A stretch of 64,000 nt of DNA. It comes from Yersinia aleksiciae. GTDB taxonomy: Bacteria > Pseudomonadota > Gammaproteobacteria > Enterobacterales > Enterobacteriaceae. Numbering within the stretch: position 1 is the first letter of the stretch; every line of letters starts with the position of its first letter. The translations under genes and the position numbers were made by a program. The stretch covers positions 1,714,073-1,778,072 of the forward strand of contig NZ_CP011975.1 in NCBI RefSeq assembly GCF_001047675.1, written 5' to 3'. Of this stretch, positions 38,680 to 42,922 are shown one piece after another. The notes beneath the pieces are model-generated. The model worked only from the letters and a program-made list of their open reading frames with translations, did no database searches and was not told where the DNA came from.

Positions 38680-38748
38680 ATGGAAATAATTATTCTTGAA
38701 ACCAAATTGCCAGCGCAAGACATCCCTCGCCCAGCCGCTGACCAATAA
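38680..38748 (+). CDS. Candidate 22-residue precursor peptide
   Basis: ATG at 38680 has a GGAG ribosome binding site (38667-38670) at good spacing and opens a 22-codon frame ending in TAA. The peptide begins MEIIILETK, continues LPAQDI and ends PRPAADQ. It thus has an aliphatic N-terminal half with Glu2 and Glu7, and a Pro/Ala/Asp-rich C-terminal half, with no Cys, Ser, Tyr or Trp. It lies directly before a strong stem-loop and a gene whose product has a PqqD-like N-terminus. In RiPP loci such domains bind the precursor's leader region. The length is close to PqqA (about 23), but the Glu-xxx-Tyr motif of PqqA is absent. I do not recognise a homologue, and so short a frame can occur by chance. 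Confidence 0.5.
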   Translation: MEIIILETKLPAQDIPRPAADQ

Positions 38749-38751
38749 TGA

Positions 38752-38795
38752 CCGAGGCCTCCCTGGTGCATCTGGGGAGGTTATATATACCTCGG
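38752..38795 (+). promoter_or_regulatory. Strong stem-loop between the peptide gene and the first HDO gene
   Basis: CCGAGG (38752-38757) pairs with CCTCGG (38790-38795), and the adjoining CCTCCC (38758-38763) pairs with GGGAGG (38775-38780). This makes a 12-bp GC-rich helix with one 9-base bulge. There is no U-tract, so full termination is unlikely. It may attenuate transcription or protect the upstream mRNA so that peptide exceeds enzyme. Confidence 0.65.
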
Positions 38796-38832
38796 CCCAT
38801 ATAACGTTTTACGGAATGGAGAACGTGCTCCT

Positions 38833-39846
38833 ATGGAAGGTTCTAAACCCTTATTGTTACCCCATATAACACTATCAACCCACACGGCTTCACGCGCAGG
38901 GGTTCTGCTGACCATTGCCGACCTTGGTGAATGGGATCGTTTCAATCGCCTGCTTGAATGCTGTGATGGCAAACACACGACAGAACAAATCGCCACAACC
39001 CTTTCTCTCGATATCTCCACATTGAATAACACTCTCAACTCTCTGGAAGAAGCGGGGTTTATTTGGTGTTTACCGGATTACCACGCCATCCCAACGTCTT
39101 TATTCCTACAGGAGTTTAACCGCTGGCTACCCATCTGGGTTCACCAGATGTACGACCAGCCGATGATATGGCAAGGCCTGTATGAGGGCAATGAACCCGC
39201 ATCAATAATGATTGGTTGGGCACAGGAGAATATGCACTATACCCGTAGCGTGATGGCACATATGCCCCTCGCAGTCCAATACGCCAATACGGCAAAGGAG
39301 CGGCAAATACAGCTCCGCCATCTCAGCGAAGAGTGGGATCACTATCGGCTGTTTATGACCGCCTGCCAATCCACGGGAGTCAGTGAAGAGAGCCTCAATC
39401 AAAGCCGCCCACTGGCAAGTACATTGAATATCACACTCTTTATGCGCAGCGTCGCCCCACTAGGGACACTGGTATATAACGCATGCGAGGCACTACTGGA
39501 GGCGACCACGGATAATGGGCGCACCGTGGTGGATTTTTACCAAACCGTCGGCCAACGGCACAACTTGCCCCAGACATTCACCGATGAGTTGGTTCACCAC
39601 CTGATGGTCGATAAAGAGTTCGGACATATCGATATTTTCGCACAGCTGCTGGAGGACTATCCGATGCTGCCAGCATCCACCGTGGCCTCGATATTCTCAA
39701 GCTGCCATAGGTTGGCTGAATGGTTTGAGATATGGAATGACGATATTTATCAGCACTATCGGCAGTCAGACTCGCCCTATTCAGTCAACCACAACACCCC
39801 ACAAAAAACATCTCATCAACATCAGTCGTCAGGAGTTGACGGCTAA
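38833..39846 (+). CDS. PqqD-like domain fused to a heme-oxygenase-fold (HDO/PqqC-like) metalloenzyme
   Basis: This is a 337-residue protein of unknown function. Residues about 24-79 resemble the PqqD/RRE winged helix, with the core LLECCDGKHTTEQIATTL and the end LEEAGFIW. Residues about 95-310 are all-helical and carry the spaced metal-ligand pattern of iron-containing redox enzymes of the heme-oxygenase fold: E132-xx-H135 (QENMHYT), EEWDH at 166-170, and D260-x-E262-xx-H265 (DKEFGH). The same pattern recurs in the protein at 40740. Family enzymes include PqqC, TenA and oxygen-activating di-iron oxidases, so an oxidative modification is plausible, perhaps of the upstream peptide. The C-terminal 30 residues are polar and look disordered. 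GGAG precedes the start by 11 bases. Confidence 0.72.
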   Translation: MEGSKPLLLPHITLSTHTASRAGVLLTIADLGEWDRFNRLLECCDGKHTTEQIATTLSLDISTLNNTLNSLEEAGFIWCLPDYHAIPTSLFLQEFNRWLPIWVHQMYDQPMIWQGLYEGNEPASIMIGWAQENMHYTRSVMAHMPLAVQYANTAKERQIQLRHLSEEWDHYRLFMTACQSTGVSEESLNQSRPLASTLNITLFMRSVAPLGTLVYNACEALLEATTDNGRTVVDFYQTVGQRHNLPQTFTDELVHHLMVDKEFGHIDIFAQLLEDYPMLPASTVASIFSSCHRLAEWFEIWNDDIYQHYRQSDSPYSVNHNTPQKTSHQHQSSGVDG

Positions 39847-40700: not shown

Positions 40701-40739
40701 TCCAGGCAACATCCAACCGAGTAACAACAGGAGGAAATC

Positions 40740-41720
40740 ATGATGTTGAAAAATTCGATTATCATTGAGTCTCTTCAGGAACACAGGCTGCGCCTGACCT
40801 CAAGGCTACAGGTTGTCGAGTTGGTTCATACCGATATCAGTGCCTATTTTATCGCTCAGCTTATGACACACAGAGATCCCGAGCAGGCACTGAAAGAGGC
40901 GGATTGTGGCGAGGAGTTCAGCAACGATTTTATGGCGTTTCTGGACAAAAATAGGATGCTCTACCCTTTTCCACCCGATGCCGACTACATTGATGCCAGT
41001 CTGGCTGCTGACGCCCTTAACGGAGAGCTGCATCTTTGGGCTGATGCCTTGTACTGTGATCCATTTTGGCAAAGAATGAATAATCCGGATTATCCCGGCA
41101 ACCTTAATACCCTTTACGCTTGGGCCATAGAGAATTATCACCATACCCACAGTGTGATCCAACATCTGGGAGCCGTAATAGCCCACACAAATGAGCCATT
41201 GCTGATTAATAAGTGTATAACTCATTTAGCTGAAGAGTGGGATCACCCTTACCTATTTAAAATCAGCGCCACCCGTTTTCGCCATGCTCATCAATTACCC
41301 CCATTGGAGGAAAACTTACTGCCACTGCCCAGCACCCAAGGTATTTGCCTGTTCTTACAGATGGCGGCTAAACAACACCCATTTGTCTATAAGAGTTGCG
41401 TGGCCGTTTTGGAGAAAACGGCGCAGCGAGTTGAAGAGACTCGCCAGTTTTATCGCCATGTAGCGGCCCAACATGCTTTGCCTGACAACGTTGTTGCCCC
41501 GCTGATAAAACATGCCGAAACCGATGAAGAGTATGATCACCTTAATTCATTAAGCCTATTCTCCGCCTGCTATGGTGCCTTGCCGATAGCCATCGTTGGG
41601 GAAGCGCTGAGGCTCGCCTATCGCTTTACTGAAGCACTTTATCTCTGGCAGTGTCACCTATTAGATATTTATTTGCATCAGCCACTGGGTCAAGGCCACC
41701 GTAGCCGTCGGTCTGCTTAG
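40740..41720 (+). CDS. Second PqqD-like/heme-oxygenase-fold metalloenzyme
   Basis: This 326-residue protein is homologous in plan to the one at 38833. The N-terminal part (about 25-76, ending FMAFLDKNRMLY) looks like a more diverged PqqD-type winged helix. The C-terminal domain carries E131-xx-H134 (ENYHHTH), the same EEWDH motif at 165-169, and D262-x-E264-xx-H267 (DEEYDH). Identical motif spacing shows that the two genes are ancient paralogues. Conservation of all ligands in both suggests two active enzymes or a heterodimer. It has an AGGAGG ribosome binding site, the strongest of the block. Substrate unknown. Confidence 0.68.
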   Translation: MMLKNSIIIESLQEHRLRLTSRLQVVELVHTDISAYFIAQLMTHRDPEQALKEADCGEEFSNDFMAFLDKNRMLYPFPPDADYIDASLAADALNGELHLWADALYCDPFWQRMNNPDYPGNLNTLYAWAIENYHHTHSVIQHLGAVIAHTNEPLLINKCITHLAEEWDHPYLFKISATRFRHAHQLPPLEENLLPLPSTQGICLFLQMAAKQHPFVYKSCVAVLEKTAQRVEETRQFYRHVAAQHALPDNVVAPLIKHAETDEEYDHLNSLSLFSACYGALPIAIVGEALRLAYRFTEALYLWQCHLLDIYLHQPLGQGHRSRRSA

Positions 41721-41731
41721 GTCACTCATTG

Positions 41732-42922
41732 ATGCCTTTATGGAAACGCCCGAAATCGATGCAGCCAATGGTGATTGTTTTTATCGGCTCATCCTTGGCT
41801 TATTACGTGCTGATGACGACGTTATCCACTTATCTCCATGATTATTTGAATTTTCCTGTTACGACTGTTAGCGCCATTATGTTTGGGTATATTTTCGTTT
41901 CGCGGTTGTCCAAAGTGGCGTTGGGGCCGTGGTTTGATCGCCGGACTTTTCGCTCCGGCTTGATTTTTGCCCTGAGCATTTCCGCTGGTGGATTTTTATT
42001 GGCATCACCGAACAGTATCATGGGCAAATTCGCCCCTTGGTGTTTGTGTATTGCTGGGGTGGGTACAGCCTCGGTTGTCCTGCTCATTCAGTCATTTATT
42101 GCCAACCAAAAACAGACTCAATTACGCCGCGTGACCACCCCGGCGGATTACTCTTTTATCTATATTTTGATGAATGGCACCGCATTAGTGGCACCGTTCA
42201 TCGGTTTTGAAATACTGCGCCATTTGCCCCAAGGGCTCTATTGGATAATAGGCGGGTTCTATTTATTGCTCCTGATCTATTGTCTGGCATATATATCGGG
42301 GCCTGAGAACACAAACGCCCCAACACCACGACCCACGCTCGCCGATTGGCTGATGCCCTTTAAGCAGCGACGTTATTGCCGCTTTCTGCTTATCAACAGC
42401 CTATTGTGGATGTTACATGCCCAGCTCTATTCCACCATACCGCTCTATATCCGCGAAACGCTGGGGGGCGAAAATCATCTGACCCTATTTTTTACCGTGG
42501 AAGCGCTATGCATCATGGTGTTGCAGCACTGGGTCAGTCTCTATATTAATCAGCACATTCAGCCTTATTACCCTGCCGTGGTTCTGCTGCTATTTTCCCT
42601 CTCTTTTTTCCTGATTTATCTCGCTCAAGGCATGGTATTGCTTCTCTTGGCAGGTGCCGTTTTCGCCCTTGCCCGTATGGTCTTTATGCCCAGCGCCGAT
42701 GCAAGCAATGCCGCATTTGCCAGCCCTGGCAGTTTCGCTACCTATTTTGGTTTGGCCTCACTCTCAGCAACACTCGGTGATTCTTTCGGCAGCATGCTAG
42801 GAATGTGGGGGTTTGCTTTCCTGCTGCAAAGTGGAGATATACAGCAATACTTTCTCTGGCTCGCAGGTATTACCGCAGCACTGGCAATTTTTTGCCGCAA
42901 TCCGTATAACTGTCCTCTATGA
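41732..42922 (+). CDS. MFS transporter of the HDO block
   Basis: This is a 396-residue major facilitator protein with about 12 hydrophobic helices; a cytoplasmic loop between helices 6 and 7 contains NTNAPTPRPTLADWL. A conserved GYIFVSRLSKVALGPWFDRRTFRSG stretch (written here only to show the loop 2-3 motif region, about residues 48-72) marks it as MFS. The ATG at 41732 is 11 bases after the upstream stop, and the TTAGG of that junction serves as ribosome binding site. As last gene of the block it is the likely exporter of the pathway product, or less likely an importer. No terminator separates it from tex. Confidence 0.78.
   Translation: MPLWKRPKSMQPMVIVFIGSSLAYYVLMTTLSTYLHDYLNFPVTTVSAIMFGYIFVSRLSKVALGPWFDRRTFRSGLIFALSISAGGFLLASPNSIMGKFAPWCLCIAGVGTASVVLLIQSFIANQKQTQLRRVTTPADYSFIYILMNGTALVAPFIGFEILRHLPQGLYWIIGGFYLLLLIYCLAYISGPENTNAPTPRPTLADWLMPFKQRRYCRFLLINSLLWMLHAQLYSTIPLYIRETLGGENHLTLFFTVEALCIMVLQHWVSLYINQHIQPYYPAVVLLLFSLSFFLIYLAQGMVLLLLAGAVFALARMVFMPSADASNAAFASPGSFATYFGLASLSATLGDSFGSMLGMWGFAFLLQSGDIQQYFLWLAGITAALAIFCRNPYNCPL

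What the first reader, a model, noticed from the sequence alone, without database searches (positions are those of the whole stretch)
38680..42922. Unrecognised peptide / PqqD-HDO / exporter block inserted between greB and tex
Sequence shows a 22-codon frame with a ribosome binding site, a strong stem-loop, two proteins with PqqD-like N-termini fused to heme-oxygenase-fold metal-ligand motifs, a third helical protein and an MFS transporter, all in one orientation with gaps of 11-39 bases between the large genes. In established RiPP systems, PqqD-type domains bind precursor leaders, and PqqC is itself a heme-oxygenase-fold enzyme. Inference: a compact pathway that oxidatively modifies a short peptide and exports the product, resembling PQQ synthesis in parts but without PqqE, PqqB or PqqF.
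Basis: partly seen in the sequence, partly recalled or inferred. Interest (0 to 1): 0.92.

Follow-up and report, generated by a model that had tools for sequence, protein, structure and literature searches.

The report
New peptide-oxidising gene cluster in Yersinia
A tiny, strongly conserved gene for a 22-residue peptide sits next to genes for enzymes that appear to grip and oxidise it with iron and oxygen, and a pump that would export the product; relatives of this set with different peptides occur in other bacteria.

Summary
The observation largely holds. The 22-codon frame (38680-38748) is a real gene: it accompanies all 6 Yersinia copies of the block (one has a stop in HDO1), with pooled pN/pS 0.11 over seven copies. 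HDO1 and HDO3 align with all six diiron ligands of MboA, a heme-oxygenase-like oxidase (HDO) acting on a peptide. HDO1's N-terminus is PqqD/RRE-like by profile (79%; 95% with 15 relatives); HDO3's is not detectably so. P2 is probably a diverged HDO fold without those ligands. Full-length relatives in gamma- and alphaproteobacteria also lie by a short peptide gene with a lineage-specific C-terminus: P[IV]LxxxHL by paired HDOs (10 of 10 loci), CG by single HDOs (6 of 6). HDO hits lacking the N-terminal part: 0 of 27. Best reading: an undescribed class of ribosomal peptide product in which leader-gripping diiron HDOs oxidise the peptide's C-terminal end and an MFS pump exports it. Product and chemistry are unknown. 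Ten open-access library searches listed no description.

The parts
38667..38670 (+). ribosome-binding site GGAG of the precursor gene
   Evidence: sequence; purine-rich sites also precede the relatives' copies
38680..38748 (+). precursor peptide gene, MEIIILETKLPAQDIPRPAADQ: residues 1-11 invariant (presumed leader), 12-15 variable (linker), PRPAA[DE]Q conserved (presumed core)
   Evidence: with all 6 Yersinia copies of the block plus one degraded cluster; pooled pN/pS 0.11
38758..38780 (+). hairpin between precursor and HDO1 (attenuator or processing stem, inferred)
   Evidence: sequence and folding (z -1.8); conserved in Yersinia, but covariation not above controls
38833..39846 (+). HDO1: N-terminal PqqD/RRE-like winged-helix domain (about residues 1-85) plus heme-oxygenase-like diiron oxidase domain; presumed ligands E167, H170, E223, H256, D260, H265
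39870..40700 (+). P2: 276-aa protein, probable diverged HDO fold lacking the six diiron ligands; non-catalytic partner or scaffold (inferred)
   Evidence: hhalign 83% to the HDO domain of A10, column-shuffle control at most 0.49%; no match to A2 or A3 alone; no Pfam match
40740..41720 (+). HDO3: second HDO with the same six presumed ligands; N-terminal region not detectably RRE-like
   Evidence: no Pfam match
41732..42922 (+). MFS transporter, presumed exporter
   Evidence: PF07690, E 3.1e-12, over its cut-off

Best explanation
The block is a biosynthetic cluster for a ribosomally made, post-translationally modified peptide (RiPP) of a kind I found no description of. Shown by sequence: a short precursor gene under strong purifying selection; an RRE(PqqD)-like domain fused to a heme-oxygenase-like oxidase (HDO) with a complete six-residue diiron ligand set; a second HDO with the same ligands; an MFS transporter; and recurrence of precursor plus RRE-HDO in other bacteria with lineage-specific peptide C-termini. 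Inferred: the invariant N-terminal strand (EIIILE) docks on the HDO1 RRE. HDO1, with HDO3 and the degenerate HDO-fold protein P2 as partners, uses a diiron centre and O2 to oxidise the C-terminal segment PRPAA[DE]Q (desaturation, hydroxylation or oxidative cleavage), perhaps with the peptide's C-terminal carboxylate on iron as in MboA. A peptidase from outside the block cuts the leader and the MFS protein exports a small product. The hairpin after the precursor may lower enzyme expression relative to precursor.
For: Peptide with all 6 Yersinia copies of the block, pN/pS 0.11. A profile of relatives without any Yersinia row finds HDO1 at 2.9e-27 and HDO3 at 3.1e-8. The 15-member profile matches 3dde (1.5e-17), MboA (4.7e-6) and CT610 (9.4e-5) in the PDB, and all six MboA iron ligands align. 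PqqD profile match 94.9% for the 15 N-termini, 79% for five Yersinia HDO1 rows. Other lineages: paired HDOs with a ...P[IV]LxxxHL peptide in 10 of 10 loci, single HDOs with a ...CG peptide in 6 of 6. HDO hits without the N-terminal part: 0 of 27. An MFS-like gene directly behind the HDO(s) in L079, L102, L103, L105, L053, L077 and L037. Precedents: VarO in a RiPP cluster (PMC6511847, passages) and MboA on a tripeptide C-terminus (PMC13185094, section 10).
Against: No product, structure or expression data. The HDO assignment of the Yersinia proteins runs through relatives: a Yersinia-only profile found no HDO in the PDB, HDO3 has no Pfam match, and HDO1's best HDO-type Pfam hit is below cut-off (TENA_THI-4, E 0.03). 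Pfam PqqD gave no hit in this genome at E 0.001 and is not among the families shown for A10; no PqqD model in the NCBIfam hits. HDO3's N-terminus scored 0.3% against PqqD, two HDO1 rows alone 64%. No peptidase among the block's ORFs. MFS proteins of different lineages are not linked by blastp, and five of nine scored outside Yersinia fall below Pfam's cut-off besides L104 (L053, L079, L102, L103, L105). P2 is Yersinia-only among loci fetched. AlphaFold models were too poor (pLDDT 47 and 39). All genes present in only 6 of 25 genus genomes. G719's tandem-HDO locus has a 52-aa ORF without the motifs. Between some less close relatives the peptide differs at more amino-acid-changing than synonymous codons (8 to 5, 10 to 8).
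Confidence: 0.82

Rival explanations
1. The short frame is a regulatory leader peptide: ribosome stalling on its Ile/Val/Leu-rich codons controls the hairpin and so transcription of the HDO genes. The HDOs act on a free small molecule.
For: A hairpin follows the short ORF in 17 of 18 loci folded, z from -1.0 to -5.0; Ile/Val runs in the Yersinia and paired-HDO peptides.
Against: Conserved parts include C-terminal residues (PxLxxxHL, CG, PRPAA[DE]Q), which attenuation does not need; most single-HDO peptides lack such runs; RRE-like domain on the enzyme; the R. etli locus has no such hairpin.
Confidence: 0.08
2. The peptide is a carrier or scaffold: residues are added to or built on its C-terminus and released, so the HDOs act on a non-encoded residue held by the peptide.
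For: ATP-grasp and class-III aminotransferase genes in G1101, class-III aminotransferase in G1286, class-V aminotransferase beside the G1007 HDO; a thiamine-diphosphate enzyme between precursor and HDO genes in the Tistrella-type locus L162.
Against: No such gene in the Yersinia block, nor between or directly behind the precursor, HDO and MFS genes of G1138, G1284, G131 and G1162, although a type III polyketide synthase-like gene lies 2 kb beyond the MFS gene in G1138 and next to it in G1283.
Confidence: 0.08
3. The HDOs are self-sacrificing or act on free metabolites, as CADD makes 4-aminobenzoate (recalled), and the peptide is an unrelated small protein carried along.
For: 6 of 15 family members match the CADD model TIGR04305 at E up to 10, best 1.1e-8.
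Against: Peptide gene in 22 of 22 RRE-HDO loci examined and 0 of 27 HDO hits without the N-terminal part.
Confidence: 0.02

Closest known systems
Thiovarsolin pathway (VarO heme-oxygenase-like protein; PMC6511847, passages seen)
   Same: An HDO-type protein in a RiPP cluster with an MFS gene; the varO deletion makes only the products 2 mass units heavier, read by the authors as loss of a dehydrogenase.
   Different: There YcaO-TfuA is required and the precursor is repetitive, and the MFS gene was dispensable; here no YcaO/TfuA match in the block, a 22-residue precursor, and the HDO itself carries an RRE-like domain.
MboA of mangotoxin biosynthesis (PMC13185094; outline, passages and section 10 seen)
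   Same: Same six diiron ligands with H-x3-D-x4-H spacing; acts on a short peptide whose C-terminal carboxylate binds iron.
   Different: Substrate is a tripeptide from ATP-grasp ligases, not a ribosomal precursor; the 250-residue chain aligns from its residue 24, leaving no room for an RRE.
PQQ biosynthesis (PqqA, PqqD, PqqC; general knowledge)
   Same: Short precursor, PqqD-like domain, heme-oxygenase-fold oxidase.
   Different: No Tyr in the peptide, no radical SAM match among the block's ORFs, no Pfam PqqD hit in the genome; here RRE and HDO are one protein with a diiron ligand set.
CADD (CT610)
   Same: Profile homologue of the HDO domain (9.4e-5).
   Different: No RRE and no precursor peptide (general knowledge).

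Membership tests
RiPP pathway | short ribosomal precursor gene under selection as protein | tested here: met
   pN/pS 0.11 over 7 Yersinia copies; recurring short ORFs by relatives
RiPP pathway | leader-recognition domain (RRE) on a modifying enzyme | tested here: inconclusive
   hhalign to PqqD 94.9% (15 rows), 79% (five HDO1 rows), 64% (two HDO1 rows), 0.3% (HDO3); PqqD models not among the Pfam and NCBIfam hits shown; binding not tested
RiPP pathway | mature modified product | not testable with these tools
   needs mass spectrometry
Heme-oxygenase-like diiron oxidase (HDO) | 3 His + 3 Glu/Asp diiron ligands as in MboA | tested here: met
   E167 H170 E223 H256 D260 H265 in HDO1, same set in HDO3, through the 15-row alignment; position 260 is Asn in the A/B types of other genera
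Heme-oxygenase-like diiron oxidase (HDO) | helical HDO fold | tested here: inconclusive
   15-row profile homology to solved HDOs but none for a Yersinia-only profile; AlphaFold model too poor
PQQ biosynthesis | PqqA-like precursor with Glu and Tyr; PqqE in the cluster | tested here: not met
   no Tyr in the peptide; no radical SAM match in the block's four large ORFs
Thioamitide/thiovarsolin | YcaO and TfuA in the cluster | tested here: not met
   the four large ORFs of the block have no such Pfam match
PqqD family (PF05402) | match to the Pfam model | tested here: not met
   G000 has no match at E 0.001

The most novel reading that the evidence does not exclude
RRE-fused diiron HDOs define an undescribed RiPP class spread over gamma- and alphaproteobacteria with at least three precursor types (...PRPAA[DE]Q, ...P[IV]LxxxHL, ...CG, mostly GATCG). 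The enzyme pulls the precursor in by its N-terminal part and oxidises its extreme C-terminus by carboxylate coordination to iron. In paired systems one HDO keeps the RRE and the other has lost it.
Probability: 0.5. Interest if true: 0.9.

Novelty: new variant of a known kind. Interest (0 to 1): 0.8.

Why it matters
It would add a leader-guided, iron- and oxygen-dependent way to modify ribosomal peptides, outside radical SAM, YcaO, LanB and MNIO chemistry, in very small clusters (precursor, one or two HDOs, a pump). The precursors found are 20-67 residues and easily missed by annotation; the C-terminal motifs give a direct way to find more. It also bears on an open question: what many uncharacterised HDOs act on.

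Tried and rejected

Dropped rows: G023 HDO1 (stop codon at codon 9) was left out of A2; G1287's second HDO (split) was left out of the tree; the four loci were not in the shuffle and hairpin tests.
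Full report
Observation. The block is as described: a 22-codon ORF (38680-38748) with a GGAG site, a hairpin, and four co-directional ORFs between divergent greB and tex. The window lies in an unnamed 4.0-Mb genome whose genus is Yersinia: two genomes of the same genus have contigs with the length and match position of Y. thracica and Y. nurmii records.

The peptide is a gene. In 60 genomes drawn as relatives, HDO1 was matched over most of its length in 6 of 25 genus genomes (own included; one, G023, has a stop at codon 9), only in pieces in 3 (G013, G010, G005), and not at all in 16; none of the 35 genomes outside the genus matched. 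All 6 copies have the peptide upstream, as has the degraded G013; it was not found at G010 or G005. Seven copies give MEIIILETKLP-xxxx-PRPAA[DE]Q. Pooled over the seven, pS is 0.54 and pN 0.06, ratio 0.11. Codons 1-11 have 7 variable bases and no amino-acid change. Peptide DNA is 84% identical on average against 68-69% for equal flanks (five copies).

The enzymes. HDO1 and HDO3 are homologues (hhalign 99.2%). By themselves they are hard to place: HDO3 has no Pfam match, HDO1's TENA_THI-4 hit is below cut-off (E 0.03), and a Yersinia-only profile finds no HDO in the PDB. Relatives place them. A profile of four relatives without Yersinia rows finds HDO1 at 2.9e-27 and HDO3 at 3.1e-8. In the 15-member alignment E132-x2-H135, E167-x2-H170, E223, H256 and H265 are invariant, and position 260 is Asp or Asn. 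Its profile matches solved HDOs: 3dde 1.5e-17, MboA 4.7e-6, CT610 9.4e-5. In the MboA alignment E167, H170, E223, H256, D260 and H265 fall on its iron ligands Glu86, His89, Glu143, His172, Asp176 and His181 (ligand list from PMC13185094 section 10; the numbering offset of 25 is my own working and fits all six). Ten of 15 members match Pfam PF14518 at E up to 10, best 1.7e-10.

The N-terminal domain. Pfam sees a winged helix-turn-helix in HDO1, below its cut-off (E 3e-4); RREs have that fold (general knowledge). Profile comparison with 21 PqqD rows gives 94.9% for all 15, 94.7% for the A-type, 82% for single-HDO types, 79% for five Yersinia HDO1 rows (64% for two), 13% for the B-type and 0.3% for Yersinia HDO3. 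Column-shuffled controls gave at most 0.42% (earlier alignment). So one HDO of each pair keeps a recognisable RRE-like domain. It is not a match to Pfam PqqD.

P2. A profile of six P2 sequences matches the 15-member HDO domain at 83% over 192 columns against at most 0.49% for 30 shuffles, but not the Yersinia HDO alignments alone. In that alignment P2 keeps E69-x2-H72 (the E132/H135 pair) and the PLTST stretch but not the six diiron ligands. I infer a non-catalytic partner. It was found only in Yersinia loci among those fetched.

Relatives. Searches with HDO profiles found nearly full-length RRE-HDO genes sparsely: for example in 7 of 295 genomes drawn from the family (its other 9 matching genomes had the HDO domain only), and in none but the own genome. 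With the R. etli plasmid copy I examined 22 loci. Yersinia: 6 of 6 with PRPAA[DE]Q. Paired HDO genes in other genomes of the family: 7 of 7 with a peptide ending [RH]P[IV]LxxxHL, such as MQNKTIIVIPKKPRPILLPHHL. Fused pairs in three Tistrella-type genomes: 3 of 3 with a 55-residue peptide ending KPVLIAVHL, found by a motif-guided scan after a first scan missed it (one of these contigs has the length of Tistrella mobilis record NC_017958.1). Single RRE-HDOs: 6 of 6 ending in CG, such as MKLKKVSKKSTKKLGGATCG. For 18 of the 22 loci the same kind of ORF appeared in 3 of 5,400 dinucleotide shuffles of the upstream DNA. HDO hits lacking the N-terminal part gave 0 of 27. Between close relatives the peptides differ mostly by synonymous codons (3 to 1 in two pairs, 7 to 1 in one, 2 to 2 in one); two less close pairs show more amino-acid-changing than synonymous codons (8 to 5, 10 to 8).

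Tree. Yersinia HDO1 and HDO3 form one group (99/97); the A and B genes of the other pairs each form one (100/100); single HDOs form one (98/97). Joins between these groups rest on long branches. The pairs may have arisen more than once.

Layout. An MFS-like gene follows directly in seven loci outside Yersinia (L079, L102, L103, L105, L053, L077, L037). Pfam MFS scores there range from 5e-10 (L077) to 0.007 (L103), several below the cut-off, and blastp does not link the Yersinia MFS to the nine others compared. A hairpin lies between precursor stop and HDO start in 17 of 18 loci, all but R. etli, with z from -1.0 to -5.0; its covariation in Yersinia is not above controls.

Mechanism (inferred). 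The invariant strand-like leader docks on the RRE-like domain, as in other RRE systems. The conserved C-terminal segment enters the diiron pocket; by analogy with MboA, where the substrate's C-terminal carboxylate binds iron, the modified residue is likely at or near the C-terminus. Oxidation type is unknown: desaturation is the precedent in VarO and MboA. Leader removal must use a peptidase outside the block. The MFS protein would export the product.

Novelty. Ten searches of an open-access library showed no account of RRE-HDO clusters in their listings; two listings were long and only partly shown (15 of 77, 12 of 627). RRE-Finder and the later structure-based RRE paper do not hold the words heme oxygenase, HDO, TenA or PqqC in their main text (word searches only). 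The HDO review cites ribosomal peptide modification by HDOs with reference to the thiovarsolin paper (passages). Most subscription journals and preprints are unseen.

Noticed in passing
L022:4673-4699 (genome G023): HDO1 of this Yersinia relative has a stop codon at codon 9 although the peptide and the other large genes are open.
   Followed up: no
L026, L027, L028 (G013, G010, G005): Decayed copies at the same greB-tex site: G013 keeps the peptide but only parts of the enzymes, G010 is in pieces without the peptide, G005 has only a scar with an HDO1-start piece next to an MFS-end piece.
   Followed up: partly
L078:9128-12985 and L104:7420-10139: Two paired-HDO clusters carry extra genes: a class-III aminotransferase, a 484-487-aa protein with a third HDO domain, and in L078 an ATP-grasp ligase.
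   Followed up: partly
L162, L163, L164 (Tistrella-type): The two HDOs are fused in one 691-aa ORF (read in L162 and L163), next to a third HDO-like protein; in L162 a thiamine-diphosphate enzyme lies between precursor and HDO gene.
   Followed up: partly
L079:3219-4271 and L103:852-1895: Type III polyketide synthase-like gene on the same strand near the two paired-HDO clusters of one genus; link to the cluster unknown.
   Followed up: no
L055:6457-8337 (G719): Tandem HDO-HDO protein of 626 aa with a 52-aa upstream ORF that fits none of the three peptide types; transposase-like ORFs nearby (recalled as IS256-like).
   Followed up: no
[not shown]
   Followed up: no
L105:5444-7472 (G1287): The second HDO of this pair is split over two ORFs.
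   Followed up: no
alignment A10, HDO1 residues E132 and H135: An extra invariant E-x2-H pair, not in MboA's ligand list, is kept in all 15 RRE-HDOs and in P2; its role is unknown.
   Followed up: no
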